A DNA stretch of 35,034 bases from a candidate division WOR-3 bacterium (GCA_039801365.1 JBDRUN010000016.1:1-35034), one strand, 5' to 3'. Counted from the stretch's first letter, positions 11,356 to 35,034 are shown. The notes: generated by a model not told the origin, from the sequence alone. Translations and numbers: made by a program.

Positions 11356-11442
11356 ATCAACCTCCCGAGAAAATGATGAGTAATGAGTGAAGCGTAATGA
11401 GAAACGGACGAAAAGCGACCATCACCTGTTGCTTCGCCCGGT

Positions 11443-12630
11443 TCATATCCATCCGGAACCATACTTACCCTGCTCAGTTGCCGGCGGCTTTCGCGGCCCG
11501 ACACTTTCAGGCATTGCGCCAGGCGCGGTCGTGTCGGTGTGGCCCTTCGCCTTCGCTTTCGCGGTGTCGGTCTTTGGCGGCCCGGCCGGGCCGCGCGCGG
11601 AGTCTGCCGGAATCGGCGGCTTGGGCGATGCGCCGGGATTACGCACCAGATACATCCTTACCGCGGCAGCTACAAGTAACGCCAGCACAACGACAGCGAA
11701 CAGCACCAGCACGAGCCTCCTGCGCCGCCCTTTGACCGGTCCCCGCGCTCCGCCGACCGCTGACCGCTTCCCAAGCTCCACGGCCTCCTCTCTTTCTTTC
11801 TCTTCCTCTTCCCCTTGAAGCGGACTAGGGGGGGAGGGCAAAAACTGCTCACTGCCCACCTTCACTACGATGATCGTCGCATTGTCAGGTGCGCCGCGTC
11901 TTTTCACTTCATCAATAACGCTCAGCACTGCCCTTCCCGGCTGGCCGGAAAGCACCAAGTCGCGCAGCTCCTCGTCCTCCAGCACACCGTGCACTCCGTC
12001 GGTTGTGAGCACAAAGACATCCCCGGTGCGGACTTCCTCCTCAAACAAGTCCGGCTTGGCCGCATCGCTTCCCAGCACCCGGCTGATGACGTTGCGCTTC
12101 GGGCTGGTCCTAGCCTGCTCCGGCGTCATCAAACCCTTGCGCACGAGCCGCGCCACCAGAGTGTGGTCTTCTGTTATCTGCCGCATCTGCCCGTCGCGTA
12201 TGAGGTAACACCGGCTGTCCCCGATGTTCAGCACGTACGCCCGGTCAGCCACGAGTGCCAGAGCGACCAGGGTCGAACCCATCCCCCTGCGGCTTGGGTC
12301 CTGGGCCGCGTCCAGAACAGCCCGATTTGCCGCCTCAGCCGCCTGCACAAGCATCTTGCCCGGACTCCCGGCCCAAGGCCGCTGGTAGTAGAACTCCGCA
12401 ACCGTGTCCACGCCCAACCTACTTGCCACTTCGCCCGCGGCCTCGCCGCCCATCCCGTCCGCGACCACGTACAAGAGCCCGCGCTCCCCGGCAAGCGCCT
12501 GCTCGGCCTCGCCCGGCACGAACAGCGCGTCCTCATTCTTCGGCCGCATCTCGCTCAGCCCACGGTCGGACAGGAAGCCAACCGCTGGCCGCCCGCCGCG
12601 TTCCGGCTGTTTCACTTCACCCTTTGCCAT
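11443..12630 (-). CDS. PP2C-family Ser/Thr phosphatase with C-terminal membrane anchor
   Basis: A 395-aa metal-dependent protein phosphatase that would reverse the neighbouring kinases. The metal-binding motifs are all present: RPKNEDAL (Asp34), VVADGMGGEAAGE (Asp58), GMGSTLVAL, NIGDSRCYL, LTTDGVHG (Asp211) and APDNATI (Asp249). After the catalytic domain (about 16-258) comes a linker (264-303) of repeat-like text (PSPPSPLQGEEEEKERE), one transmembrane helix (305-328) and a Pro/Ala/Lys-rich tail of about 65 residues, which would lie outside the cytoplasm. Start ATG at 12630. It lies between the kinase gene (118-bp gap) and the FHA-ABC gene (87-bp gap); both gaps are purine-rich on the coding strand. 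Prokaryotic PP2C enzymes linked to PASTA kinases are well known; the extracellular tail is not a standard part. Confidence 0.92.
   Translation of the reverse strand: MAKGEVKQPERGGRPAVGFLSDRGLSEMRPKNEDALFVPGEAEQALAGERGLLYVVADGMGGEAAGEVASRLGVDTVAEFYYQRPWAGSPGKMLVQAAEAANRAVLDAAQDPSRRGMGSTLVALALVADRAYVLNIGDSRCYLIRDGQMRQITEDHTLVARLVRKGLMTPEQARTSPKRNVISRVLGSDAAKPDLFEEEVRTGDVFVLTTDGVHGVLEDEELRDLVLSGQPGRAVLSVIDEVKRRGAPDNATIIVVKVGSEQFLPSPPSPLQGEEEEKEREEAVELGKRSAVGGARGPVKGRRRRLVLVLFAVVVLALLVAAAVRMYLVRNPGASPKPPIPADSARGPAGPPKTDTAKAKAKGHTDTTAPGAMPESVGPRKPPATEQGKYGSGWI
12581..12605. repeat. 25-bp dispersed repeat, copy A
   Basis: This sequence (ACCGCTGGCCGCCC...) recurs at 13689-13713 with 23 of 25 bases identical. 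Copy A encodes RGGRPAV near the N-terminus of the PP2C phosphatase; copy B encodes RGGRPAVSG in the kinase linker. The proteins are otherwise unrelated there, so the similarity is at the DNA-word level. Confidence 0.7.
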
Positions 12631-12748
12631 TCACTACTCACTCTTCGCCTCGCGTCCTTCTCTCCTTCGCTCCTCTCTCTTCTCTCTTCACTCATCACTT
12701 CATCGGTCAGATGTTCAGATGGCCAGATTACCAGATTCACAGAAAGAA

Positions 12749-14938
12749 TTACTGACGCCGGGAACAGCGGAAACCCAGATGGCCGTGCCGGTACGATGGC
12801 TCAAACCCGGCGCGATTCGCGCAGCGCAGGTCCCTGGCGAGGTAGTACCAGGACCCGCCACGAGAGACGCGGGCCAAGCCAGAAGACGGCCCTTGTGGGT
12901 TGTTGCTTGCGCTTGAACCGTAGTAGTTGTCTTTGTACCAGTCATTGCACCACTCCCACACGTTCCCGGCCATATCCATACAGCCATAGGGTGATGCACC
13001 CGAAGGAAACGAGCCGACCGGCGCGGTTCGGGCATAACCGTCATCCGCGCTCTTGTCGCTCCAACCGTAGTCCGTGTTCCGGTCCGCAAAGTTGCACCGG
13101 CTACCGGTTGGCTCTGAGTTACCCCACGGGTACTTCCGCGAGTCCGTGCCGCGCGCGGCCTTCTCCCATTCTGCCTCGGTCGGCAACTGCTTGCCTGCCC
13201 AGTCGCAGTACGCCTTGGCATCCTTCCACGATACATTCACGACCGGGTAGTCCGGATAGCGCGTGAAGTAGTCAGTCATTCCGAGGAAGTCCGGGTCAGA
13301 CGGATAGCTCCGGCCGGTCGCATCGCAGAACTGCTTGTACTGCCGGTTCGTCACTTCGTACTTGTCTATGTAGTACTCGTCCAGATACACCTGATGTACC
13401 GGCTTCCCGTCCGGGCCTCCGTCATTTGACCCCATCGTGAACGTCCCGGCCGGTATCTTTATCATCACCGAGCTGTCCTTCAGCCAGAGGAACTCCTCAT
13501 ACCCCTGGCTGTTCCGACCAAGAGCAGTCATCCTCGTGGGAGCGGTCTCCTGACCACGATTGTCGCCCTGCCCTGTGCGAGCGGCATCCCTGCTGCGACT
13601 GCCCGCAACTATCGCAATCACCACGACTGCGGCGAGGACGGCAAGGATACCGGCGACAATCCAGCCGGTTTTCTTCCGCTCGCCGCTGACCGCTGGCCGC
13701 CCACCGCGCTCCGCCACCCCCTCCCTTTCTTTCCCTCTCCCTCGAGGGGGAGGGAAGGGTGAGGGTGAAGACGGAATGCGGTCCGCGGAAGACAGTTGGC
13801 TTTCCTCCGGCACCGTCTGCTGTTCCCAAAGCTGTCGGCTGTCAGCGGATGGCTGTTGGCGCTCCTCCGGCCGCTTGCCCCGGCTGAGCGTCACCCGGAC
13901 CGCCGCTCCCGCGGCGCAGAACTCACCGGGCGCAGGGCACTGGCGCAGAACCGCGCCCTCGGGAACCGTGTCTGAGTACTCCTCGCCCTCAAAGGCTACG
14001 CCGCACCCTGCCTGCCGCAGAAGAGCTTCCGCTTCGGCCCGAGCTCGGCCCTGCACCGAGGGCACAACCCGCCGGGCCGGGCCTGCGGTCAGCGGCGAGC
14101 GGGGGGCGGCAGGCTCTTGCTCCAGCGCCGCCGCAAACTCCTCGCAGGACGCAAACCGGTCGGCCGGCTTCTTCTCCATCGCCTTCAGTATTACCCGCTC
14201 CAGCTGCTCGGAAATTGCCGGGTTGCGCTGCCGCGGCGGTATCGGCGGCTCCTGCAGGTGCGCCTCGAAGAAGGACGAGGTCTCGGACGCGTCGAACGGC
14301 AACCGGCCGGTCGCGGCTTCATACAAGGTGCACCCGAGAGAGTAGATGTCCGTTGCTTTGGTCAGCTTTTTGTCCAGGACCTGCTCAGGAGACATATACG
14401 CCGGCGAGCCAACGCGATGCCCGGATACAGCGATACTCGTGTCGCCCGACACTATCCGGGCAATTCCGAAGTCTCCCACCTTGGCCCCGAACTCAGACAG
14501 CATGATGTTCAAGGGCTTCAGGTCCCGGTGAATGATGCCGTGCCGGTGCGCAAACCCGACCGCGGACAACACCTGACCGAACAGCCGCTTCAGTTCCTCG
14601 GCCGGCAGCGCGCCGTTCCGGCGTATCAGCTCGGACAGGTTACGCACCCCGGCCACGCCGGCAATGTACTCCATTATCAGGAACAGCCCGCGCTCGTTCT
14701 CCACAAAGTCGTAGAGCGAGACGATGTTAGGATGCTCCCTGAGCTTGGCCTGAGACTCGGCCTCGGCCGCGGCCCGCTCCGATGCCGCCTTGTCGCCGTA
14801 GATGAGTGCGGGCGACAACAGCTTCACCGCCACAACCTGAGAGGCAATCTTCTGGTGCACCGCCTTGTACACCACGCCCATCCCGCCCCGGCCGACCTCC
14901 TCAACGATGCGATAGTTGCCGACGGAAGCGCCAATCAT
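12749..14938 (-). CDS. Ser/Thr kinase with PASTA, membrane helix and FGE-sulfatase-like domain
   Basis: A 729-aa membrane kinase. The kinase domain (8-275) is intact: GRGGMG loop, Lys39 in VAVKLL, HRDLKPLN with Asp139, DFG at 156-158, and GSPAYMSPEQ. One PASTA-like domain follows (291-353). Unusually it precedes the transmembrane helix (425-446), so it should be cytoplasmic. A low-complexity linker (356-424) holds SADSRQLWEQQ, PSPFPPPRGRGKERE and RGGRPAVSGERKK. The outer part (487-729) is a formylglycine-generating-enzyme/sulfatase-modifying-factor-like domain: IPAGTFTMGS, DEYYIDKYEVTN, LPTEAEWEKAARG, NVWEWCNDWY, SRGGSWY and a final GFRCSRR. This fold is often a carbohydrate-binding or sensor module. 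The kinase would read an extracytoplasmic signal through it and phosphorylate cytoplasmic partners such as the FHA protein. Start MIGASVGNYR; the gap upstream is 112 bp. Confidence 0.92.
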   Translation of the reverse strand: MIGASVGNYRIVEEVGRGGMGVVYKAVHQKIASQVVAVKLLSPALIYGDKAASERAAAEAESQAKLREHPNIVSLYDFVENERGLFLIMEYIAGVAGVRNLSELIRRNGALPAEELKRLFGQVLSAVGFAHRHGIIHRDLKPLNIMLSEFGAKVGDFGIARIVSGDTSIAVSGHRVGSPAYMSPEQVLDKKLTKATDIYSLGCTLYEAATGRLPFDASETSSFFEAHLQEPPIPPRQRNPAISEQLERVILKAMEKKPADRFASCEEFAAALEQEPAAPRSPLTAGPARRVVPSVQGRARAEAEALLRQAGCGVAFEGEEYSDTVPEGAVLRQCPAPGEFCAAGAAVRVTLSRGKRPEERQQPSADSRQLWEQQTVPEESQLSSADRIPSSPSPFPPPRGRGKEREGVAERGGRPAVSGERKKTGWIVAGILAVLAAVVVIAIVAGSRSRDAARTGQGDNRGQETAPTRMTALGRNSQGYEEFLWLKDSSVMIKIPAGTFTMGSNDGGPDGKPVHQVYLDEYYIDKYEVTNRQYKQFCDATGRSYPSDPDFLGMTDYFTRYPDYPVVNVSWKDAKAYCDWAGKQLPTEAEWEKAARGTDSRKYPWGNSEPTGSRCNFADRNTDYGWSDKSADDGYARTAPVGSFPSGASPYGCMDMAGNVWEWCNDWYKDNYYGSSASNNPQGPSSGLARVSRGGSWYYLARDLRCANRAGFEPSYRHGHLGFRCSRRQ
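13689..13713. repeat. 25-bp dispersed repeat, copy B
   Basis: Partner of 12581-12605 (two mismatches). It lies inside the kinase gene and encodes part of the linker just before the membrane helix. Confidence 0.7.
13731..13756. repeat. 26-bp imperfect palindrome inside a kinase linker
   Basis: Centred on CTCGAG, with arms TTCCCTCTCC and GGGGAGGGAA and one mismatched pair. Translated on the minus strand it gives the linker residues FPPPRGRGKER. It resembles the dispersed palindromic 'SPLP-GEG' type words seen in many bacterial genomes. A related non-palindromic word occurs in the PP2C linker around 11805-11840. Confidence 0.6.
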
Positions 14939-15050
14939 GGCTTATCGTCTATAGCTGGCCGCGTTTGGTAGTATCGCTATTCACCATTCGCTACTCGCTC
15001 CCCACTTCGCTTCCTTCTCCATTCTCTGCCTACCGCCCACCTCTCGTCTC

Positions 15051-15527
15051 TCATTTCATCACCGCACCAAGAACAGCAAGCAGCTTCTCCTTCACTGCTA
15101 TGCGGCGTTCAACGGAGAACTTCATCCTTGGCTTGAGCAACAGCACCTCCAGTTGATAGGTACCATCCACACGGCACACGATTGTATCCTGTGCCAGCTG
15201 GGGCAGAACTCGGAACAGCGCTGCCATATCGTAACTCAGCGGCAGGCAAGTAACCAGAGAGTCCCGACCACGCAGGCTCAAAACTTCGTTCGCCCGTCCG
15301 CGGCCAACGGCCTCGCTGCCAATGAAGACGGTGTACTCAACATCGGACACCTTGGCCGAGAACGAGTTGGGGTTTCTTACCTTCACGCTCAGGTCTAAAA
15401 CGCTCTCGCCGGGAAAAGCCAGTCCAACCAACTCCACTTCTGCCGGTTTCACCATCCAGCCGCAGTTCAGACAAGAAACCAACAGGGCAAGAGCCAACAC
15501 CCGCAATCCATACTTCACGCTACGCAA
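15051..15527 (-). CDS. LEA2/WHy-domain lipoprotein
   Basis: A 158-aa probable lipoprotein. The signal sequence LRVLALALLVSCLNCGW offers a lipobox with Cys at LNC|G. The rest fits the LEA type 2 (water-stress/WHy) fold: VELVGLAFPGESVLDLSVKVRNPNSF... (a long conserved beta segment with the hallmark NPNSFSAKVSDVEY), then a second strand block and VDGTYQLEVLLLKPRMKF. The TTG start at 15527 is supported by GGAGG four bases upstream. LEA2 domains are beta-sandwich modules tied to desiccation tolerance or to binding of envelope components; their role with kinases is unknown. It lies between the two kinase genes and is a distant paralogue of the product at 18799 and of the C-terminal half of the product at 19351. 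Confidence 0.75.
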   Translation of the reverse strand: MRSVKYGLRVLALALLVSCLNCGWMVKPAEVELVGLAFPGESVLDLSVKVRNPNSFSAKVSDVEYTVFIGSEAVGRGRANEVLSLRGRDSLVTCLPLSYDMAALFRVLPQLAQDTIVCRVDGTYQLEVLLLKPRMKFSVERRIAVKEKLLAVLGAVMK

Positions 15528-15695
15528 GTAACCTCCAGTTCACATCTACACAACACCAAACCCGCCCTCGCCGAGCTTGCCAGTTGCCTGATGTTCGGTA
15601 ACGGCCTAGCCAGCCATGTCCTATGAGAAACTGCGACTGGAAATCTGATGTTGCATCTGTTTTTCCTTCCGATGTGCTGTTGCCAAAGTGTCTGG

Positions 15696-18659
15696 TCATC
15701 GCCCGGCTGCCCAGAGCACAAGGCGCGTAAGAAGTCCATCGCTCGCTGAACTTGTTCCTGCGCCGGAATAGAAGTATGCACACCGACCAGAGCCATATAC
15801 GTATCTAACAGCCGCGGCGCTGCCGTCGTTCCATTTGGCTATCACCGTCCCCCTAGTTCCTGTGATCGCGGCACCACCGTTGCACTTCGAGTTTGAGTAG
15901 AGTATCTGACCATCAGTGGTGTTCACCCAGCAGTTGCCAAAAGTGTTATGGTATTCTCCACCACCCATCCACGAGGGCAGTGAATACCCGCCAGCGAGAA
16001 AGTAGGGAGTGCCGCTGGTAAGGACAACTCCACCACCTTCTGCGATACGGTTACGCAAATAGGCTGCGGTCGTAGTGTTGCAGGCGTCATAGTTTTCAAC
16101 AACGATAACCGAGTAGTCTGAAAGGTTGGATGGTATAGAACTGGAAGTTCGAACATTGAACCCCAGACCAGTCAAGAGCGTTGTCATCGTCGAACTGCTT
16201 CCGACGTAGAGCGCTGGAGAACCTGACCGTGCGCCGGTCCCCGGGTCCACGTTCCCAGCTCCCTCAGCGTTGATAGCTGCACGCGCGTACGGAGACTTCG
16301 GATACTCGGACAGCAGGCGATGTGCTTCACGCCAATCACTCACCGCTTGTTCTTCATTTCCCACTTTGTGGTACGCTTCACCTCGCCACGACCAGGTCCA
16401 GGCGCTCGTAGGCTCCAGCTTCAGGGTCATCGAGAAATCCTCAATTGCGAGCCAGTATTCGCCCTTGCAGTAGTAGGCCAAGCCACGGTTAGCATAAGGT
16501 GTGGGATGATTGGGATTCTGATTGATACAAGCTCCGTAGTAACGAATTGCCTCGTCGTACTTACCAGCTCTGATTGCCTCTGCCCCGAGCTCGAAGTTCT
16601 CGTCGAAGCTACGGCTCGGCGTCCCACCATCTGTGGATTTCGTCCGTATCTGAGTCTTGGCGAAGACAGACACGGCAGGAGGTGTGGTACGCAACTCCCC
16701 ACTGGTTTCAAGAGACCGGGTAACGACCGTCTCTGTGGTCGTGTCAGGCATCGTGCCGGCGGCGCGGTCAACAACCTGGCGCTTCTTGTTCGATAAGAGC
16801 AGTAGTAGCAGACCGACAATGACCAGCATTACGGCCAGGGCTGTCGCGAACACACGGCTGCGACGGGCGCGCCTGCGACGGCCCTGCTTTTCCACAACAG
16901 TTGCTCCAGACGCAGGACGTTCAAGAGTGGATTGACCGGGTGACGGCTCCCGCACCGTCCTCTCAGAGAAGAACGCACGCGGCTCCTTGCTCTTGCTGAG
17001 AACAAGAGCAACCGTTTCGCCTTGGTTCAGCAGGGCGCCGGGAGGGGGACTCTGCCAGGTAACCGTCCCAGCCTGGGCCGCTTCCGAGAAGTCCTCGTGC
17101 TCCACCGTCGGCGTCAGACCGACACCGGCGAGCAATCCCTCGGCCTCCTCAAGTAACCTGCCCCGAACGTCCGGGACCTCCACCTGCCGCTCCTGCACTC
17201 CCAAGCTCAGCACGACACTGAGTTCAGAACCCTCTGCCAGCCGCACGCCGGCCGGAGAAGCCTGTCTGAGTACCCTGCCGGCCGCAATGTACTCGGACGG
17301 CTCCTTGCCTGATACCACCAGCCGCAGACCCAGAGCAGCAGCAGCTCCCTCGGCCTCGGCCTGTGTCAGCCCGCCCAGCGCAGGCACGCTGACCAGCTTC
17401 GGCCCCTTGCTCAGCACCACGGTCACAACACCGCCTGGCTCAAGCATCACGCCGGCCTCAGGCGTCTGCCCGACAACCGCACCCTGCTTCACCTTTCTGG
17501 AGAACTCCTCGCTGCCGACCGCGAGCTTGAGCCCAAGTTCAGCCAGCATCCGCTCAGCCTCAACCTTCTGTCTGTCCCGAAGCTCGGGTACGCTGACCGG
17601 CTTCGGCCTTGGCCCCTTGCTCACAACCAGCCTGACCAGCGTGCCGTCTTCCACCACTGCGCCAAACTCCGGCTCCTGGCGCAGAACCGTCCCGGCCGGC
17701 ACGTCGTCTGAATGCTCCTCCGCAATTTGCTCGACCCGTAGCCCGACCTGCCGGCCCAGCGGCTCAGCCTCGGCCCGCGTCTTTCCGCAGAACCCGGGTA
17801 CAACAACCATCCGCGCCTCGCGCGTGCGCGCAAGCGCCGCCGCAAACTCCTCGCAGCTCTGGAACCGCTCCTCCGGCTTCTTGGCCAATGCCTTGAGCAC
17901 GGCCCGCTCCAGCTCAACTGGTATGTCCGGATTTGTCTCCCGCAAAGGCGGCGGCGGCTCGGATAGGTGCTGCTCCTCAATAGAAGTCGTCGAGGTGGCA
18001 TTGAACGGTATTCTGCCCGCCAGCATCTCATACAGCGTTATCCCCAAGGCATAGATGTCGGCCCGTGCATCCAGCACCTTATTCAGCACCTGCTCCGGTG
18101 ACATATACGCCGGAGTGCCCATTCCGCCCCGGGTCAACGAGTACTCGCCCTGCCCGGGCGCCAGCATCTTCGCCAGCCCGAAATCTCCTACCTTAGCTGT
18201 CCCCTGCTCGTTGAACAACACATTCAGAGGCTTCAGGTCACGGTGCAGCACACCGTGACGGTGCGCGTAACCCACTCCGGCCAGAACCTGCCGGAATACC
18301 GAAAGTGCCCGCTCTTCCGGCATCGGCCCCAGTTTGATGAGCTCGGCCAAAGACCGCACCCGCTTCCCCTCGGCCACAACCATCCCATCCATCAATTCCA
18401 TCACTATGAAGTACCGGCCATTGTGCTCAAAGAAGTTGTGAATGCCGACTATGTTCTCGTGCCGCAGTCGGGCCTGGGCCCGGGCCTCGGCAAAGAACCG
18501 GTCTCGGAACCGTGCCTCGCCGGTCAGGAACTGGTGCAGAGTCTTGATAGCCACTTCCTGCTCCAGTAGCCGATGCACTGCTTTGTACACGACGCCAAAA
18601 CCGCCCTTGTCCGAGATAAGCCCGGTTATCCGATAGTCACCGACGGTCTGGCCGATCAT
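15696..18659 (-). CDS. Ser/Thr kinase with four PASTA domains, TPRs and a ThuA-like tail
   Basis: A 987-aa membrane kinase from ATG 18659 (MIGQTVGDYR); the open frame extends 23 codons further upstream, but the kinase homology starts here, just as in the neighbouring kinase. The kinase domain (8-280) has Lys39, HRDLKPLN with Asp141, DFG at 159-161 and GTPAYMSPEQ, with a slightly atypical glycine loop (SDKGGFG). Four PASTA-like repeats run 284-348, 353-418, 421-487 and 492-556, before the membrane helix (602-623), so by simple topology they are cytoplasmic. This is the reverse of PknB-type kinases. Beyond the helix come about three TPRs (685-790) and a C-terminal alpha/beta domain (815-987: ALYVGSSSTMTTLLTGLGF, SVIVVENYD, GGGVVLTSGTPYF, GSGRCAYFYSG) that looks like a ThuA/GATase1-like fold. 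That last call is inference. Confidence 0.9.
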   Translation of the reverse strand: MIGQTVGDYRITGLISDKGGFGVVYKAVHRLLEQEVAIKTLHQFLTGEARFRDRFFAEARAQARLRHENIVGIHNFFEHNGRYFIVMELMDGMVVAEGKRVRSLAELIKLGPMPEERALSVFRQVLAGVGYAHRHGVLHRDLKPLNVLFNEQGTAKVGDFGLAKMLAPGQGEYSLTRGGMGTPAYMSPEQVLNKVLDARADIYALGITLYEMLAGRIPFNATSTTSIEEQHLSEPPPPLRETNPDIPVELERAVLKALAKKPEERFQSCEEFAAALARTREARMVVVPGFCGKTRAEAEPLGRQVGLRVEQIAEEHSDDVPAGTVLRQEPEFGAVVEDGTLVRLVVSKGPRPKPVSVPELRDRQKVEAERMLAELGLKLAVGSEEFSRKVKQGAVVGQTPEAGVMLEPGGVVTVVLSKGPKLVSVPALGGLTQAEAEGAAAALGLRLVVSGKEPSEYIAAGRVLRQASPAGVRLAEGSELSVVLSLGVQERQVEVPDVRGRLLEEAEGLLAGVGLTPTVEHEDFSEAAQAGTVTWQSPPPGALLNQGETVALVLSKSKEPRAFFSERTVREPSPGQSTLERPASGATVVEKQGRRRRARRSRVFATALAVMLVIVGLLLLLLSNKKRQVVDRAAGTMPDTTTETVVTRSLETSGELRTTPPAVSVFAKTQIRTKSTDGGTPSRSFDENFELGAEAIRAGKYDEAIRYYGACINQNPNHPTPYANRGLAYYCKGEYWLAIEDFSMTLKLEPTSAWTWSWRGEAYHKVGNEEQAVSDWREAHRLLSEYPKSPYARAAINAEGAGNVDPGTGARSGSPALYVGSSSTMTTLLTGLGFNVRTSSSIPSNLSDYSVIVVENYDACNTTTAAYLRNRIAEGGGVVLTSGTPYFLAGGYSLPSWMGGGEYHNTFGNCWVNTTDGQILYSNSKCNGGAAITGTRGTVIAKWNDGSAAAVRYVYGSGRCAYFYSGAGTSSASDGLLTRLVLWAAGR

Positions 18660-18798
18660 GGGGATGTAAGACGTGAAAAGTAAGGTGTGTGACGCGAAAC
18701 CGGGGATGCGAGACGGGAAACGTGGCACTCAGGTCGAAGGGGCAGAGGACGTTCTCCCGACCGACTCATTTCACATCTTCCATTTCACGTTTCACATC

Positions 18799-26122: not shown

Positions 26123-28288
26123 TCAGTCATCTGCTGGCGCCTCATCACCGGTCTCAAGCTGTGCCTTCATCTGTCTGCGGACCTCGTCTGCCGCAAGCTC
26201 GACCGGTTTCACCGACCCGAGGAAATCAATAAGTCCGGCCACGTCAAGCGCCAGGAGGTGGTCCTCCACCTGTAGTTCAGCCGGCAGCAGCCTGAAGAAC
26301 GCACCTGACCCAAGGTTATCCTGAAGTCGAGTGATGTTCTTGCGCACGACCTGTCTGATTGAGGACATCTCCGGGATCGGAAAGCGCGAGAGACCGGTTT
26401 TTGTGGCCGGGAAGGAAAACAGCTTCCCGTCCAGATCTGCAACCTGTCTTCCCTCTAGCACAAATGCCTCGCTCAGGAGGAATCCGTGCAACGGGCCAAG
26501 CAGGTGCACCAAGAAACGTTGCCGGCCTTCGTCAAACCATGGGAACTCGTCTGCCGCCAAGTCGGGGAAGAGCCGGCTCTTCAGGACTTGCGCCAGCCGG
26601 TACCCGTATCCGGCCGTACCGGTACCTTCGAACACCTTGGTCGTCGCGCCGACATCCTGAAATGGCCGGACCATGACCCGGCTCTCCTTTTCTCGGAACT
26701 CAACGACCTCCCACGCCCGACCACCAAGCATAAACGTCCGGAAAACGTAGAACACCGTACCAAGATGCCGGTTGGTCTCAGCATCGCACACCTCGTATTT
26801 GCCGAAAGACTTGTCCTGAATGTTGGAGTGAATCTTGCCGTATTCAACCTGCCGCTCGAGCTTCGGCCCCAGGTAGTAGATACCCGACCGCTGCTCCACG
26901 ACCACGCCCTGCTCGCACAAGTGATGAAACGTCTGCTCGACTGCGCCGCCGGTGCCGAAAACCGAGCTCAGCACTCGACGTAGCGCCGGTAGTGTTGTGC
27001 CGACTCGACGCCGCTGCAAAAGATATGATGCGACCTGCTGCGGAATAACCGAGAGCGCAGGCGTATAGCGTTTCTCGCACAGCCTTCCTAGCCGGCAGCA
27101 CTCAAGGAAGGTCTGAAACAGAAAACGCTCCCAGGCATCGGCGTAGGTGCCCAACATGAAAAGCGTGCCTTTGCGCCGATTGCCCCTTCCCACCCGTTGC
27201 AGAAGCGACGACACGTTGAAGGGCGGCCGGACAAGAACTACAGCATCAATATCGCCGATGTCAATCCCGAGCTCCAAGGTAGAGGTACAGCACAGAATAC
27301 CTATCCTCTCCTGATTCATGCGCGCCTCGACCTCTTCCCTAACTTTACGGGTCAGACTCGCGTGGTGAACCCAGACCCGATTGGCAAACGGCGGGATGGC
27401 CAAAAGTCCGGCCGAAGATTCGGCCCAGGACCGCGAGTTGAAAAAGCATAGTACCTTGCGCAGACCACGGGACCGTAGCTCAGCCACGGTTCGCTCGTGC
27501 CAGCCCTCGCGCATCGGCAAAAGTACGTTCTCGATTTCCCGGCAGGCGTCAACCTGAACCACAACCGGGTCCGGGAAATAGCGCTGGCCGATGTTGGTAT
27601 CGTCGATCGTCGCCGAAAGAGCACAGCACTGAAGACCGGGCATTGGTTCCCTAGAATCCGATATTACCTCGGAATCTTTGGCCAATGCCGAACCCGGCAG
27701 CGATTTGGAGGTCGAGGAGAAAACCCCTGACTCCCAACGCCAGGCGCGAGAGTTTATTAGCCTCAACCGCTCAAGCAGCACGCGAAGCTGGTCTCCGCGT
27801 GGCGTGTTATCCAGAAGATGCAGCTCGTCCAAAATAACCGCGGCCAGGCCGGCGAAGACGGACGTATGTCGGCACAGAAGGGAATCAAGTGACTCAGGTG
27901 TTGTCAACAGCATGAACGGAAGCCGCGACTCGGAAATCTCCGGATGGTCTCCAGTCTTGCGTGCCAGGTCCAGGCCGAGATACTCCATCGGTTCACAGAG
28001 TCGACGGTGCAGGTCATTGACCAGCGCCCTGGTTGGTGAGACGTACAACACCGAGACTGAACTGACGCAAGAGCGGTAGCATCCGGCAACCTGCAGCAGG
28101 CGCTCGATGACTGGCGCGGTTACTGCCTCAGTCTTACCCGAAGCTGAAGGTGATATCACTACGACGTTCCGGCCCCGGATGATGAGCGGAATCGAACGTA
28201 CCTGGACCTCGGTCAGCCGGCCGAACCGGCCAAAGAACGGAAACCAGGTCCTCTTTAGAAGGCGCCGGACTTCGGTCTCAGTCGTCAA
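26123..28288 (-). CDS. Superfamily II DEAD/DEAH helicase, Lhr/BrxHI-like
   Basis: A 721-aa ATP-dependent nucleic-acid helicase. Motifs: SPSASGKTE Walker A (47-54), SPTRALVNDL (84-93), LLTTPESLDSLL (128-138), DELH (154-157), LSATIDD (224-230), CFFNSRSWAE, HHASLTRKVREEVE, TSTLELGIDIGDID and QRVGRGNRRKG (364-374). The order and text match Lhr-like helicases, including the BrxHI proteins of some BREX loci; the C-terminal ~250 residues are not a family I recognise. The TTG at 28288 overlaps the end of the preceding ATPase gene by 11 bases (TTGACGACTGA); an ATG 90 bases further up lies deep in that gene and is less likely. Residues 183-219 (SSTSKSLPGSALAKDSEV) form a repeat-like insertion between motifs II and III. 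Last gene of the four-gene operon. Confidence 0.88.
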   Translation of the reverse strand: MTTETEVRRLLKRTWFPFFGRFGRLTEVQVRSIPLIIRGRNVVVISPSASGKTEAVTAPVIERLLQVAGCYRSCVSSVSVLYVSPTRALVNDLHRRLCEPMEYLGLDLARKTGDHPEISESRLPFMLLTTPESLDSLLCRHTSVFAGLAAVILDELHLLDNTPRGDQLRVLLERLRLINSRAWRWESGVFSSTSKSLPGSALAKDSEVISDSREPMPGLQCCALSATIDDTNIGQRYFPDPVVVQVDACREIENVLLPMREGWHERTVAELRSRGLRKVLCFFNSRSWAESSAGLLAIPPFANRVWVHHASLTRKVREEVEARMNQERIGILCCTSTLELGIDIGDIDAVVLVRPPFNVSSLLQRVGRGNRRKGTLFMLGTYADAWERFLFQTFLECCRLGRLCEKRYTPALSVIPQQVASYLLQRRRVGTTLPALRRVLSSVFGTGGAVEQTFHHLCEQGVVVEQRSGIYYLGPKLERQVEYGKIHSNIQDKSFGKYEVCDAETNRHLGTVFYVFRTFMLGGRAWEVVEFREKESRVMVRPFQDVGATTKVFEGTGTAGYGYRLAQVLKSRLFPDLAADEFPWFDEGRQRFLVHLLGPLHGFLLSEAFVLEGRQVADLDGKLFSFPATKTGLSRFPIPEMSSIRQVVRKNITRLQDNLGSGAFFRLLPAELQVEDHLLALDVAGLIDFLGSVKPVELAADEVRRQMKAQLETGDEAPADD

Positions 28289-29705
28289 CCATTCCCCGTC
28301 TGGCCAGCCCCCCTGCCCGGGTCCGCGCCACATCCAACCCCTCGACACAGAACTTAATGAACGACCTGACACCCTCATTTCCGGACTGCACTGCGGCAGA
28401 GAACAGCCGCTTCTGCTCGAACTCGGAAATATCGAAGCCGGGATAGGCCCGCTGGTAAGTCATCATCAGCGTGGCGAACAGGTCCACAAGCGCCCGATCG
28501 GCAAGCGGTGCGAGCTCAAGCTTCTGCTTCACACGATTCGCAATCCTGATGTAACCGTAGTCGTACGGGTTCGGCGTCGTGGCAAAAACCAGTAGCATCG
28601 AGGGGTCACGGTAAATGTAGGGTACTGGTCGCACCTGATTGTGAATCATCCGCTGGCTAATGTGCCTGACCTCAGGGTCGTTCTGGGCGGTCCGGACAAG
28701 GCCCTCCAGAAAGTTGATACTCTTGGTTAGATAGATGACGTCCCACAAGTGAGTTACGGTCTCGGCCTCGTCAATCAGGAGAACCAGGCCCTTGAGACCG
28801 AGCTGCCGTGCAATCCAGCCGATTCCGGACAGGATGTTGCAGTAGAAGTCGGCCGCGGTGGAAAAATCATAGAGTGCGGGAATCCGCTGCCCGCCCCTGA
28901 CCCGGTGCCGGCTCTGCCGCTCGGTCGCGTACTCCTTGGTGCTTTCACCCTCAATCCACTGCCAGAACACCTCGTTCTCGGTTCGCCCCGGGTCAAGCCG
29001 GCTGAGCTTACGTAGTACTGGTCCGAGGAACACGTGGTCGGAAAGGTCCAGCTCCCCGGCCTGACGCAGCAGGTCGCGAAAACCGTACTCCCGGCCACCC
29101 TGGATGTAGCGCAGATTGTGGACGATTTCCCGGTACACCCGCTTGGGCCGATGCGGGCTCACCTCATGTGGGTCAAACTGACATAGACTGGTGACCATGC
29201 CCGCCTTAAGCGCACGGTGGTGAATATACTCAAGCAGATGGGTCTTGCCGGTGCCGTAGTCGCCCTCCACGAGGTACGCCTCTCCTTGCCCTCGGCCAAG
29301 CTGCAGGAGCGCAGCATCAATCACCCCCATCTCTCGGTCTCGACCAAAGGTAAAAGCTTCAACGTCCTGGTGCGGCACGATGCCGAGTCGAAACGCTTCG
29401 ATCATCCGGCATGCCTGGATTCGGTCAATTGAACGGAATCGGCTGGTGCCAAACTTGAGCAGGTCATCGTCAAACTTCGCCACGAGCCTGACCCTTCTTG
29501 TCGGCAGCCACAGCTTGAGCCCGCTCGTGAACTTCACCAGCAGTTCAGTACCGCGCCAGCGTGCGTCAAGCACTTCGCCCTCGCCGAACACCGGGTGCGA
29601 AACAAGCCGTGCCGAGCGGCCAGAAAGAGCGGGCTCCGGACTTTCGACTGCTGATCCCACCCCCGGTTCTCTTGTCTCTGGCCTCTCTCCCCTAGTACTC
29701 TTCAC
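28278..29705 (-). CDS. BREX-like DUF2791 P-loop ATPase with N-terminal Tudor-like domain (ATPase A)
   Basis: A 475-aa ATPase from GTG 29705, which overlaps the TAG of the upstream ATPase gene; a longer frame exists but lies inside that gene. Residues 1-30 are low complexity (STRGERPETREPG). Residues 33-75 (RLVSHPVFGEGEVLDARW, ELLVKFTSGLKLWL) match the small beta-barrel seen at the C-terminus of UvrD/PcrA helicases. The ATPase core follows: GRDREM, Walker A GDYGTGKTHLL (148-158), Walker B LVLLIDEAET (307-316), then VFATTPNPYDYGY and a helical C-terminus. The pattern fits the 'BREX system P-loop' family (DUF2791; BrxD-like). A role in loading or controlling the helicase on DNA is inferred from the fusion and operon. 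Its stop overlaps the helicase start. Confidence 0.8.
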   Translation of the reverse strand: MKSTRGERPETREPGVGSAVESPEPALSGRSARLVSHPVFGEGEVLDARWRGTELLVKFTSGLKLWLPTRRVRLVAKFDDDLLKFGTSRFRSIDRIQACRMIEAFRLGIVPHQDVEAFTFGRDREMGVIDAALLQLGRGQGEAYLVEGDYGTGKTHLLEYIHHRALKAGMVTSLCQFDPHEVSPHRPKRVYREIVHNLRYIQGGREYGFRDLLRQAGELDLSDHVFLGPVLRKLSRLDPGRTENEVFWQWIEGESTKEYATERQSRHRVRGGQRIPALYDFSTAADFYCNILSGIGWIARQLGLKGLVLLIDEAETVTHLWDVIYLTKSINFLEGLVRTAQNDPEVRHISQRMIHNQVRPVPYIYRDPSMLLVFATTPNPYDYGYIRIANRVKQKLELAPLADRALVDLFATLMMTYQRAYPGFDISEFEQKRLFSAAVQSGNEGVRSFIKFCVEGLDVARTRAGGLARRGMVDD

Positions 29706-30960
29706 CCTCAACCTTCTCCCGGTCAGCCTGGCCCAGCCGCTGGCTGGTAACGCGCAGCAGCCTGTCGGCTTCCTTGCCATCGATCACCGTTCCGGGCTCG
29801 GCCCGCAACCGGTGAAATGCCTCGATTGCCGCTACCACAAAAAGCCGTCGGTAACTGATATCGAACATGAACGCCGAAACCGCCCGCTTCGCCAGTATCG
29901 AAATCGCCCGACTTTTCTCCTCTGGCAGCCTCCCGCCGTACGCCGCCTCGAACAGCTCGGCCAGTTTTGTCCCGAGCCCAACCAGGAACTCAACCGGTTC
30001 GATACCTAACTCCTCGAGATTGATTCGGACTCCGACTGGATTGGTCTGGGAGAACACGCTGCGCAACCGCTGCTTCAGCGCCTCGTAGACTCCGCCCGAA
30101 CCATCGAGCAGCAGGTTCTCGTCCGGAATCGCATAGAAGAACATTGCTCCGGGCAGACGTGAGTTGCCGCACTCGTCCACGAGCTGCCGCAAGTTGTCAA
30201 GGGCACGGCGCTTGTCGCGCGATGATGATATCGACATTCCCCGTTCTGCCTCATCGAACAGAAACACAAGCCCGGCGTACCCGATGGCGTGGACCCACTG
30301 AATCAGCGAACGCAGCATCCGGAACGCGGTTGCCTTGTCAACCCGCTCGGAAATGCGGTACTGAGCCCTCACTTCCCGGGCAATGTCCTCGCCCTTGAGC
30401 CACTGCACAAGCTGGCTGAATCCCTCTCCGTCCTCAGCCAGCAGCGCCGAAAACGCGCCCTTGACTGCGTTCGAGAAACTCGTGCTTTCGGTCACGGGCA
30501 GCTCATCAAGCTGTCGGAGCAGAACTTCCTTACGGTCCGCAGCCTTCCGACTCTGCACCACCCATCTGCGCACCACTGATTCGATACCCTTCTCCCAAAC
30601 TGGCGCCGGCCGGTCAACCGGCTGCGGCGCAGCCAGATTGGCGACAATCGCACGATAGACAAGCTCAAGTCGGTCAAAAGGACACTCGCTCGGATTCAGA
30701 CTCACGTATGCAACGCAGTAGTTATGTCTGAAAGCAAGGTTGCGTACCGAATACAGGAAGTGTGTCTTGCCGCCGCCATAGTTGCCGGTAATGAGCTTGA
30801 AGCTCGACAGGTTGTAGGGCAAGATACCTTTCAGATACTCCTCTTCCACAACGGCAAGATAGGGCTCCAGCCCGATGGTGAAAGTCTCGATGCCGAACTC
30901 CGGCGGCGTGCCGGTCGCGCCGAGCTTGCTGATTATCGCCTTGGCCAGTTGTTGATCCAT
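29692..30960 (-). CDS. BREX-like DUF2791 P-loop ATPase (ATPase B)
   Basis: A 422-aa ATPase with Walker A GNYGGGKTHFLY (59-70), Walker B LVFLFDEAERG (231-241) and the region FYAIPDENLLLDGSGGVYEALKQR that fits DUF2791/BrxD-like proteins. The N-terminus (SKLGATGTPPEFGIETFTIGLEPYL) is also family-like: this segment contacts the N-terminus of partner ATPases in AAA-type assemblies. It is similar in plan to the adjacent ATPase A but lacks the Tudor-like domain. Neighbours: the 294-aa protein upstream (116-bp gap), ATPase A downstream (14-base overlap). Two distinct ATPases in one operon suggest a hetero-oligomer. ATG 30960 is the only good start; its ribosome site (AGGGTG) is weak. Confidence 0.85.
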   Translation of the reverse strand: MDQQLAKAIISKLGATGTPPEFGIETFTIGLEPYLAVVEEEYLKGILPYNLSSFKLITGNYGGGKTHFLYSVRNLAFRHNYCVAYVSLNPSECPFDRLELVYRAIVANLAAPQPVDRPAPVWEKGIESVVRRWVVQSRKAADRKEVLLRQLDELPVTESTSFSNAVKGAFSALLAEDGEGFSQLVQWLKGEDIAREVRAQYRISERVDKATAFRMLRSLIQWVHAIGYAGLVFLFDEAERGMSISSSRDKRRALDNLRQLVDECGNSRLPGAMFFYAIPDENLLLDGSGGVYEALKQRLRSVFSQTNPVGVRINLEELGIEPVEFLVGLGTKLAELFEAAYGGRLPEEKSRAISILAKRAVSAFMFDISYRRLFVVAAIEAFHRLRAEPGTVIDGKEADRLLRVTSQRLGQADREKVEGEEY

Positions 30961-31076
30961 CGGCTACACCCTAAGCTCTGCGCTACGCACCACCGGACAT
31001 TCAGCTCTCGCAGACAGCATATGGAGACTTGCACCATGAACCTTTGCAATTGACTGGATTTCGGCCATTTGACTCC

Positions 31077-31961
31077 CTACCCGGACACCGGAGTATCGCC
31101 TTCGGTCACCTCGTTTGCCCTCACCGCTAGCGAGATGTAGGAGTAGTATGTTCCTTCACCCTCCTCGTTATCCGGCACCCAGAGCGCGCTGGTCTTGTCT
31201 GTCGTCTTGTCGAAAGTGGCCACATGCACTCTAATCCCGGCACTGGCCTGGCCGAGTTGGCCTGACGCCTTGAGCCGGAACAGGTCGTAGCTGAACCGCA
31301 CACGCGGATATTCTACGAACTTCTCCCTTGACGGATCGGCTCTGAACCCCTTGGGCTGCATCAAAAGTACTACCTCGGCCAGCACTTCAAGCAGCGGCAC
31401 CCGTGAACCCGGCTCAAGCCCGCGCTGGACATACACCCGTCGTAGCCCTTCGGTCATCAACCGGGCAAGCCGCTCCGGCTCCATGCTCTTCTCCTTCAGA
31501 CTTCTCGACCAGCGTATCAGTGTCGAGGCAAGCTCAGCCGGAACGAGCCGGACCGACTCTTTCAGTCGCTCGACCTCAGGTCCCCAAAAAATCACCGCCT
31601 TCCCTGCCGCGAAATCGACCCGAAGCGAAAACATGCCTGCTCGCAACACCGGTAACTGACCCCGGACTTTGAGTCCGGCCTGTTCCAGTGCTTGGGCGAG
31701 CTGGGTACCAAAACCAAACCTGAACTCCTCCTTGTCCCGTTCGATTGCTGCCTGCTCAGCGGCCACCCATTCGGCCAGAACTTCCCGCAACTCTGAATCT
31801 GGAAACTGATTGACCAGACCGGAAACACCTGCCAGCGCCTTCTCTCTGGCAAACGCATTGTTCACCGGGTCGGTCAGGAGCATCCGATATGCCACAAGCC
31901 GTTTCGCGACCTTCTGGCTGCCGGCGGCAACGCTATTGAGCCGTGCGAGCAGTCCTTCCAT
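31077..31961 (-). CDS. Unrecognised 294-aa protein, first gene of the ATPase-helicase operon
   Basis: No family recognised. The N-terminal half (1-110) is helical and charged (MEGLLARLNSVAAGSQKV, EKALAGVSGLVNQF, EVLAEWVAAEQAAIERDKEEF). The middle shows strands (SLRVDFAAGKAVIFWGPEVERLKESV). The region 150-230 is helical with LIRWSRSLKEKSMEPERLARLMTEGL-type text and VPLLEVLAEVVLLMQPKGF. The C-terminus has strands (VRFSYDLFRL, RVHVATFD) and ends EGDTPVSG. No signal peptide, helix-turn-helix or catalytic motif is obvious, so a cytoplasmic structural or recognition subunit is a guess. The frame is open 85 codons further upstream, but the ATG at 31961 is favoured because a promoter (TTGACA, 16 bp, TATACT) ends eight bases before it. 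Confidence 0.75.
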   Translation of the reverse strand: MEGLLARLNSVAAGSQKVAKRLVAYRMLLTDPVNNAFAREKALAGVSGLVNQFPDSELREVLAEWVAAEQAAIERDKEEFRFGFGTQLAQALEQAGLKVRGQLPVLRAGMFSLRVDFAAGKAVIFWGPEVERLKESVRLVPAELASTLIRWSRSLKEKSMEPERLARLMTEGLRRVYVQRGLEPGSRVPLLEVLAEVVLLMQPKGFRADPSREKFVEYPRVRFSYDLFRLKASGQLGQASAGIRVHVATFDKTTDKTSALWVPDNEEGEGTYYSYISLAVRANEVTEGDTPVSG

Positions 31962-31969
31962 AATCAGGT

Positions 31970-31997
31970 AGTATAAGCTGGCGCTCCAGACTGTCAA
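31970..31997 (-). promoter_or_regulatory. Promoter of the ATPase-helicase operon, leaderless type
   Basis: -35 TTGACA (31997-31992), 16-bp spacer, -10 TATACT (31975-31970). The ATG at 31961 begins eight bases downstream, the same distance as at ogt. One promoter is thus enough for all four genes, although the 116-bp gap before ATPase B could hold another. Confidence 0.65.
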
Positions 31998-34150: not shown

Positions 34151-34166
34151 GCAATGCCACGTCGGC

Positions 34167-34194
34167 TTGACCCTCCGATACCCGGTTCTATACT
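34167..34194 (+). promoter_or_regulatory. Promoter of uvrA, near-leaderless
   Basis: -35 TTGACC (34167-34172), 16-bp spacer, -10 TATACT (34189-34194). The ATG of uvrA at 34205 begins ten bases after the -10 box and has no ribosome site. I see no LexA-like palindrome. Confidence 0.6.
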
Positions 34195-34204
34195 TCCTCG
34201 CTCC

Positions 34205-35034
34205 ATGCCAGACGAATTCATCCAGGTCCGCGGTGCGCGCGAACACAATCTCAAGAACGTTCACCTTGCAATCCCGCGCAACAAGCTGGTCGTCATTACC
34301 GGCATCTCCGGCTCCGGCAAGTCCTCGCTTGCGTTCGACACTATCTACGCCGAAGGCCAGCGCCGCTACATTGAGTCACTCTCTGCCTACGCCCGTCAGT
34401 TTCTCGGAATGCTCGAGAAGCCGGACTGCGATCAGATAACCGGACTGTCGCCAGCCATTGCCATTGAGCAGCGCACCACCGCTCGCAATCCCCGATCAAC
34501 GGTCGGCACGGTTACTGAAATCTACGACTATCTGCGTCTCTTGTTCGCCCGCATCGGCCGGCCCCACTGCCCCAAGTGCGACCGGCCAATATCTTCGCAG
34601 ACCATCGACCAGATTGTTGACACGCTTCTTGCCGAGGCCGGCGACTCAAACCTCATCATCCTCGCCCCGCTTGTCCGCGGCCGCAAGGGTGAGTACCAGG
34701 AACTTCTGGCCCGGGCAAAACGTCGCGGATTCATCCGGGTCCGTGTCGACCGCGAGCTTTACGAAATTGACAAGGTGCCGAAACTCGAACGGTACAAGAA
34801 ACACGATATCGAACTTGTCATTGACCGCTTGACCGCAAAGCCCGAGGCCCGCAAGCGCCTGGCCGATTCGATCGAGCTTGCGCTCCGGGAAGGCAACGGG
34901 ATATGTATCGTCACGTCCAATAACGCTGACCGCCTGTTCTCTGAAAAACTCAGTTGTCCGGACTGTGGCTTCAACCTTGAGGAAATCACCCCCCGACTCT
35001 TCTCTTTCAACTCGCCATACGGTGCATGCCCGGC
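34205..35034 (+). CDS. uvrA: Excinuclease ABC subunit A (5' part)
   Basis: The first 276 codons of UvrA, the damage-sensing ATPase of nucleotide excision repair. [19 protein letters not shown] is the standard N-terminus; Walker [14 protein letters not shown] lies at 33-45, followed by [20 protein letters not shown] and [10 protein letters not shown]. The first zinc module begins at [10 protein letters not shown] (about 119-128). The UvrB-binding and insertion regions follow ([42 protein letters not shown]). The gene runs off the window at 35034. ATG 34205 is a near-leaderless start behind its promoter. Confidence 0.97.

What the first reader, a model, noticed from the sequence alone, without database searches (positions are those of the whole stretch)
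26123..31997. Compact four-gene operon: unknown protein, two BREX-like DUF2791 ATPases and an Lhr/BrxHI-like helicase
Seen: one promoter, four minus-strand genes; the last three overlap (14 and 11 bases), so they are probably made in fixed ratio. Both ATPases have intact Walker A/B and differ in build; the helicase has all motifs. Known (from memory): BrxD-type ATPases and Lhr-like BrxHI helicases occur in type 2 BREX, and related ATPase/helicase pairs occur in TerB-type operons. Here no methyltransferase (PglX/BrxX), PglZ/BrxZ, BrxL, TerB-type or kinase gene lies in the operon, and the lead gene is unrecognised. Inference: a stand-alone NTPase-helicase module, for defence or DNA repair, not described as such to my knowledge.
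Basis: partly seen in the sequence, partly recalled or inferred. Interest (0 to 1): 0.78.

Follow-up and report, generated by a model that had tools for sequence, protein, structure and literature searches.

The report
Core four-gene ATPase-helicase operon
A four-gene operon (a new protein, two related ATPases and a helicase) looks like parts of anti-virus systems, yet in this bacterial group it is inherited like a housekeeping gene set, and one ATPase carries a domain like the one the repair helicase UvrD uses to bind RNA polymerase.

Summary
The operon is real: lead gene (294 aa), two BrxC/BrxD-type ATPases and a BrxHI/Shango-like helicase, with promoter and overlaps as described. The window lies in a WOR-3 (Stahlbacteria) genome. 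The same genes, in the same order, recur in Latescibacterota, Aminicenantes, Gemmatimonadota, Zixibacteria, Desulfobacterota, Myxococcota, Bradymonadales and an archaeon. Trees of ATPases and helicase place the set outside BREX type 2 and Shango as a third family. I found no published description.

In WOR-3 it does not behave like a sporadic defence system. It is in 56 of 100 sampled relatives, by lineage (17/18 of the own family); its tree follows RpoB; ATPase A evolves as slowly as RpoB; and lead gene and helicase mostly persist even where the operon is broken up. ATPase B begins with a domain whose only solved relatives are UvrD/PcrA C-terminal Tudor domains, the RNA-polymerase-binding part. 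Among 30 genomes compared, this domain sits on UvrD or on ATPase B, never on both.

Best reading: a resident, probably transcription-linked genome-maintenance machine in which ORC/Cdc6-like ATPases load a helicase. Against it: sister branches lie on plasmids, one directly behind a BREX locus, so defence remains the main rival. Function is untested.

The parts
31970..31997 (-). promoter-like site, TTGACA-16-TATACT
   Evidence: 11 of 12 consensus matches; ATG about 9 bases downstream
31077..31961 (-). lead gene, 294 aa, new family; predicted N-terminal helical bundle, central beta-meander, winged-helix-like C-terminus
   Evidence: no Pfam, PADLOC or NCBIfam match; AlphaFold2 mean pLDDT 90.7; only weak fold matches, to ORC1/Cdt1 winged helices, E at least 0.48; homologues in 52 of 100 relatives
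29692..30960 (-). ATPase A, 422 aa, BrxC/BrxD family (PF10923)
   Evidence: PF10923 E=5e-46, 157.8 bits; 61% mean column identity across the phylum; evolves at the RpoB rate
28278..29705 (-). ATPase B, 475 aa, divergent BrxC/BrxD-type ATPase with N-terminal UvrD/PcrA-like Tudor domain
   Evidence: PF10923 E=4.5e-24; AAA+ fold incl. ORC/Cdc6 matches; GTG start, 14-base overlap with A
29472..29618 (-). Tudor-like domain of ATPase B (about residues 30-78; motif HPVFGEGEVL...GLKLW)
   Evidence: profile A4 finds only UvrD/PcrA-type C-terminal domains in the PDB (4c2t E=0.0066, 7egt 0.0074, 7egs, 6yi2); five-strand barrel in the model
26123..28288 (-). SF2 helicase, 721 aa, BrxHI/SngC-like (Lhr/Ski2-type core)
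   Evidence: PADLOC BrxHI E=1.6e-68, SngC 2e-63; DEAD and Helicase_C; motifs intact in alignment

Best explanation
A resident genome-maintenance machine, not a sporadic defence island. SHOWN: a four-gene unit, a third family beside the BrxD-BrxHI pair of type 2 BREX and the SngB-SngC pair of Shango, is core and vertically inherited in most of this WOR-3 class. ATPase B carries a UvrD/PcrA-type Tudor domain, which in the genomes compared is found either on UvrD or on ATPase B but not on both. INFERRED: ATPases A and B (ORC/Cdc6-type AAA+) form a mixed oligomer that loads or drives the helicase on DNA. The lead protein (winged-helix-like end) recognises the DNA site or bridges the ATPases. The Tudor domain docks the machine on RNA polymerase or another UvrD partner such as UvrB, so that it acts on transcription-linked trouble (R-loops, stalled polymerase, excision repair), a job UvrD/PcrA does elsewhere.
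For: Lineage-wise presence: 56 of 100 relatives (own family 17/18, own order's other families 10/10, family f6 21/23, f9 4/4) and absence from whole sister families such as f8. ATPase tree against RpoB tree: 18 of 23 splits shared, no well-supported conflict on the module side, at most 2 shared in 1000 shuffles. Identity within the family: ATPase A 74.0%, RpoB 74.0%; slope of distances 0.98. Where dS could be computed, dN/dS was 0.04-0.21. The lead gene occurs only with ATPase B (52 both, 4 B alone, 0 lead alone), also on other contigs in G021, G070, G095 and G099. The helicase occurs unlinked in several module genomes and in 0 of 18 module-free ones. In a Myxococcota order ATPase B is in 12/12 genomes. 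Neighbours read are housekeeping genes: gyrAB-like in Gemmatimonadota, mutY-like in Lujinxingia (named by eye). Tudor domain: UvrD/PcrA-type C-termini are the only PDB matches. Of 17 genomes with Tudor-bearing ATPase B none has a UvrD with Tudor; of 13 without it 8 do (p=2e-4), and G089, whose ATPase B lacks the Tudor, has it on UvrD. The UvrD/PcrA CTD binds RNA polymerase and PcrA suppresses R-loops (PMC5397179, PMC7585439, PMC8318588).
Against: Closest relatives are anti-phage systems. Sister branches are on plasmids, one directly behind a BREX locus, and one moved as a 97%-identical block between unrelated flanks. The Tudor match is weak (E about 0.007). Of the PcrA residues mutated for polymerase binding (H681, W684, K712, L714), ATPase B keeps H-x-x-aromatic but K712 is not conserved (PMC5397179), and the TGE docking motif is in only some WOR-3 RpoB. 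The complementarity is clustered by lineage (family f8 lacks both). Whole WOR-3 families live without the module.
Confidence: 0.5

Rival explanations
1. A chromosomally fixed anti-phage or anti-plasmid system: the ATPases recognise invading DNA and load the helicase, like Shango or the BrxD-BrxHI dyad, and the lineage has kept it as innate immunity.
For: ATPases and helicase are sister to BREX-2 and Shango. Plasmid-borne branch: Aulosira laxa plasmid3, where the module follows PglZ-BrxD-BrxHI-like genes, and Desulfomonile tiedjei pDESTI.01 near an AbiE toxin-antitoxin pair. An IMG/VR contig carries it. A Desulfobacterota branch has the helicase fused to a Mokosh MkoA-like SF1 helicase, with one 97%-identical block in unrelated flanks, one copy near transposase- and integrase-like genes.
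Against: In WOR-3: near-universal in whole families, RpoB-like tree and rate, no defence neighbours in the stretches read, no recognisable nuclease or methyltransferase in the set.
Confidence: 0.33
2. Domesticated defence (an origin story compatible with the best explanation): mobile branches are immune systems, and the Tudor-bearing branch was recruited once for chromosome maintenance and then passed on vertically.
For: The Tudor is present in the core branch across several phyla and absent in the mobile branches; the core branch lies beside mobile ones in the trees.
Against: The root and direction of change are not established; a core origin with later mobilisation fits as well.
Confidence: 0.3
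3. A BREX type 2 or Shango remnant or degraded island.
For: Family matches of the ATPases and the helicase only.
Against: Genes intact and under purifying selection, own clades, no TerB, conserved as a set.
Confidence: 0.02

Closest known systems
Shango (SngA TerB protein, SngB ATPase, SngC helicase)
   Same: A BrxD-like ATPase followed by a BrxHI/Lhr-like helicase in a small operon; ATPase A matches the SngB model (E=1e-20) and the helicase matches SngC (E=2e-63).
   Different: No TerB protein, two ATPases instead of one, separate clades, vertical inheritance in WOR-3; Shango is a variable hotspot defence system (PMC10250203).
BrxD-BrxHI dyad of type 2 BREX
   Same: Same ATPase and helicase families; BrxD was proposed to load BrxHI (PMC12839542); best PADLOC matches.
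   Different: No PglW, PglX, PglZ or PglY/BrxC in the operon; scores far below the BrxD equivalog cut-off (136 and 89 against 350 bits); separate clades.
PcrA/UvrD helicase, C-terminal Tudor domain
   Same: Five-strand Tudor barrel with H-x-x-aromatic motif, joined by a low-confidence (probably flexible) linker; the only PDB matches of the ATPase B N-terminus.
   Different: Placed at the N-terminus of an AAA+ ATPase; K712 not conserved; binding to RNA polymerase untested.
Lhr-type SF2 helicases
   Same: Similar DEAD/Helicase_C core; weak NCBIfam matches to repair helicases such as TIGR04121 (167 of 850 bits).
   Different: Far below every equivalog cut-off; only DEAD and Helicase_C above the Pfam cut-offs besides a marginal Cas3-like C-terminal match.

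Membership tests
BREX type 2 | PglW kinase, PglX methyltransferase, PglZ, BrxC/PglY with BrxD and BrxHI | tested here: not met
   none in the operon or among the neighbours scanned with Pfam; the rest of the genome was not searched for them
BREX type 2 | ATPase is a BrxD equivalog | tested here: not met
   NF033438: 136.3 and 88.8 bits against a cut-off of 350; separate clade
Shango | TerB-domain protein SngA | tested here: not met
   no TerB match in 24 lead-gene homologues; hhalign against three TerB-N proteins of Shango loci gives 0.1% probability
Shango | ATPase and helicase group with SngB and SngC | tested here: not met
   SngB/SngC group with BrxD/BrxHI, apart from the module; helicase split support 1.0
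PF10923 BrxC/BrxD ATPases | profile match above the gathering score | tested here: met
   157.8 and 85.6 bits against 22.2
UvrD/PcrA-type Tudor domain | five-strand barrel with H-x-x-[FW] | tested here: met
   model strands 34-75, profile match, H, F, G, G and W invariant in 18 sequences
UvrD/PcrA-type Tudor domain | match to the curated Pfam model PF21196 | tested here: inconclusive
   one of 18 members at E=0.11; the model also misses some true UvrD Tudor domains in this phylum
UvrD/PcrA-type Tudor domain | conserved lysine K712 needed for polymerase binding | tested here: not met
   K in the window but K, R, E, C, Q or T in relatives
UvrD/PcrA-type Tudor domain | binds RNA polymerase | not testable with these tools
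   needs a pull-down
anti-phage defence system | patchy, horizontally spread distribution | tested here: not met
   in WOR-3 lineage-wise and congruent with RpoB; but met for sister branches
anti-phage defence system | protects against phage | not testable with these tools
   needs phage challenge

The most novel reading that the evidence does not exclude
A previously undescribed transcription-coupled genome-maintenance machine, spread over many bacterial phyla and at least one archaeon, in which a pair of ORC-like ATPases with a UvrD-type polymerase-docking domain loads a BrxHI-like helicase and takes over the polymerase-linked role of UvrD/PcrA. Its plasmid-borne sisters are immune systems, so one machine serves both repair and defence.
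Probability: 0.28. Interest if true: 0.88.

Novelty: new variant of a known kind. Interest (0 to 1): 0.7.

Why it matters
BrxD-BrxHI and Shango are defence ATPase-helicase pairs of unknown mechanism. A core, slowly evolving relative links such immune machines to chromosome maintenance and offers a wide set of orthologues for biochemistry. The Tudor domain gives a direct test: does this machine ride on RNA polymerase? It also bears on how bacteria that lack UvrD/PcrA, or have it without its Tudor domain, handle R-loops and transcription-linked damage.

Tried and rejected
(1) TerB in the lead gene: none by Pfam over 24 homologues, none by hhalign. (2) Lead-gene fold: no confident match in the PDB or the viral library. 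(3) The module as the known Dpd set: DpdJ matches only through the helicase parts, and the library holds no paper defining such a set. (4) Kinase/PP2C/FHA genes near the operon as partners: the shared cluster was an artefact of loose linkage, mixing PP2C with other domains. (5) Mfd absence as the reason for the module: Mfd matches in all 100 relatives, so presence of the module does not track it. (6) The TGE docking motif in RpoB: present only in some genomes, so not used as support. (7) Phage carriage: no match in 50,697 phage records. (8) PF21196 as a detector of UvrD Tudor misses divergent cases (G066, G089, G097), so the C-termini were read directly.

Full report
WHAT IS THERE. The four minus-strand genes are real: lead 31077-31961 (294 aa), ATPase A 29692-30960 (422 aa), ATPase B 28278-29705 (GTG, 475 aa), helicase 26123-28288 (TTG, 721 aa). 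Overlaps are 14 and 11 bases. A strong promoter-like site lies at 31997-31970, about 9 bases before the first ATG. Both ATPases pass the PF10923 cut-off and the helicase has DEAD and Helicase_C. PADLOC's best matches are BrxD, then SngB, for the ATPases, and BrxHI, then SngC, for the helicase. The lead protein matches nothing in Pfam, PADLOC or NCBIfam. Titles of the nearest public contigs identify the lineage as candidate division WOR-3 / Stahlbacteria.

THE SET RECURS. In WOR-3 the order lead-A-B-helicase is kept in most loci that are not cut by a contig end. A named-genome scan found the same order in Latescibacterota, Aminicenantes, Gemmatimonadota, Zixibacteria, Desulfobacterota, Myxococcota, an Archaeoglobaceae archaeon and the cultured Lujinxingia vulgaris. 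Trees of ATPases and helicase agree on the main groups and separate the module from BREX type 2 and Shango; the helicase split has support 1.0, the ATPase splits are weaker in places. It is best described as a third family beside those two.

CORE IN WOR-3. Of 100 relatives, 56 have ATPase B, by lineage: 17/18 of the own family, 10/10 of the rest of the order, 21/23 of f6, 4/4 of f9, and none in f8 and several other families. The ATPase A+B tree shares 18 of 23 splits with the RpoB tree, with no well-supported conflict on the module side and at most 2 shared after label shuffling. ATPase A evolves at RpoB speed (74.0% against 74.0% identity in the family; slope 0.98), ATPase B and helicase slightly faster, the lead gene about twice as fast; dN/dS was 0.04-0.21 where dS could be computed. 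The lead gene never occurs without ATPase B (52 both, 4 B only, most of these at contig ends), even where it lies on another contig (G021, G070, G095, G099). The helicase is unlinked but present in G019, G021, G024, G033, G035, G052 and G095, missing in G022, G060, G070 and G099, and absent from all 18 module-free genomes tested. A Myxococcota order has ATPase B in 12/12 genomes, whereas the class of the Aminicenantes carrier has one close copy in 80. These counts are not corrected for relatedness.

SISTER BRANCHES ARE MOBILE. On Aulosira laxa plasmid3 a module lies directly behind PglZ-BrxD-BrxHI-like genes (genes checked). On Desulfomonile tiedjei pDESTI.01 the whole set is annotated as hypothetical protein, two BREX ATP-binding proteins and a helicase. 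In Desulfobacterota a third branch has the helicase fused to a C-terminal UPF1/MkoA-like SF1 helicase. One such block is 97% identical in two genomes and the identity stops at the lead gene's start; one copy lies near transposase- and integrase-like genes (named by eye). These branches look defence-like; no Tudor domain was found in the ones tested.

THE TUDOR DOMAIN. ATPase B starts with a small five-strand barrel (model strands 34-75). A profile of this region finds only UvrD/PcrA-type C-terminal domains in the PDB (best E=0.0066). In PcrA/UvrD this domain binds RNA polymerase (PMC5397179, PMC7585439), in PcrA through a TGE motif in RpoB that is shared with UvrB, and PcrA suppresses R-loops (PMC8318588). 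ATPase B keeps H-x-x-aromatic, while the lysine important in PcrA is not conserved. In 30 genomes of the WOR-3 phylum I read UvrD C-termini. None of 17 genomes with Tudor-bearing ATPase B has a UvrD with Tudor, and some (G001, G007, G020) have no close UvrD/PcrA at all; 8 of 13 others do (p=2e-4, not corrected for relatedness). G089, whose ATPase B has no Tudor, has it on UvrD. Family f8 lacks both, so the exchange is not a strict rule.

MECHANISM. Inferred: A and B, of the AAA+ type (fold matches of B include ORC/Cdc6; BrxD is classed as ORC-Cdc6 AAA+ in PMC12839542), form a loader or driver for the helicase, as proposed there for BrxD-BrxHI. The lead protein, modelled at high confidence with a winged-helix-like end (weak ORC1/Cdt1 matches), may choose the DNA site. 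The Tudor domain may dock the machine on RNA polymerase or UvrB. None of this is tested.

KNOWN OR NEW. Literature searches found Shango (PMC10250203) and the BREX survey (PMC12839542) but no tandem-ATPase set; the library holds open-access papers only. I file it as a new variant of the BrxD/Shango-type ATPase-helicase kind, not as a member of BREX or Shango, because defining features were tested and not met.

Noticed in passing
window 8821-18728: Signalling cluster: FHA-domain ABC-2 transporter, PP2C phosphatase and two PASTA Ser/Thr kinases, one with an FGE-sulfatase (formylglycine-enzyme-like) domain.
   Followed up: partly
window helicase 26123-28288, between the DExH and SAT motifs: An insertion of about 37 residues (RAWRWESGVFSSTSKSLPGSALAKDSEVISDSREPMP) just before the SAT motif, absent from the relatives aligned.
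   Followed up: no
L265 3554-12554 (Aulosira laxa plasmid3): Type 2 BREX-like ATPase-helicase pair followed at once by a complete four-gene module on a conjugative plasmid.
   Followed up: partly
L284 1060-6948; L285, L286, L288, L289, L290, L292: Giant 1940-2180 aa fusion of a BrxHI-type SF2 helicase with a C-terminal UPF1/MkoA-like SF1 helicase, made with the same three upstream genes.
   Followed up: partly
genomes G001, G007, G020: Nearly complete WOR-3 genomes without a close UvrD/PcrA helicase, only AddA-like-sized matches.
   Followed up: no
genomes of family f1 (e.g. L219, RpoB): RpoB is about 100 aa longer than in related families.
   Followed up: no
window 31961-31997: The lead gene's ATG is about 9 bases after the -10 box, suggesting a nearly leaderless transcript.
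   Followed up: no
L202 2000-14607 (Paenibacillus agricola): A divergent set with three BrxD-like ATPases and a helicase in a likely defence island beside HsdM-like, HelD-like and Z1-like genes (neighbours named by eye).
   Followed up: no
window 34154-35034: A UvrA-like gene starts close to the operon, on the opposite strand (named by eye).
   Followed up: no
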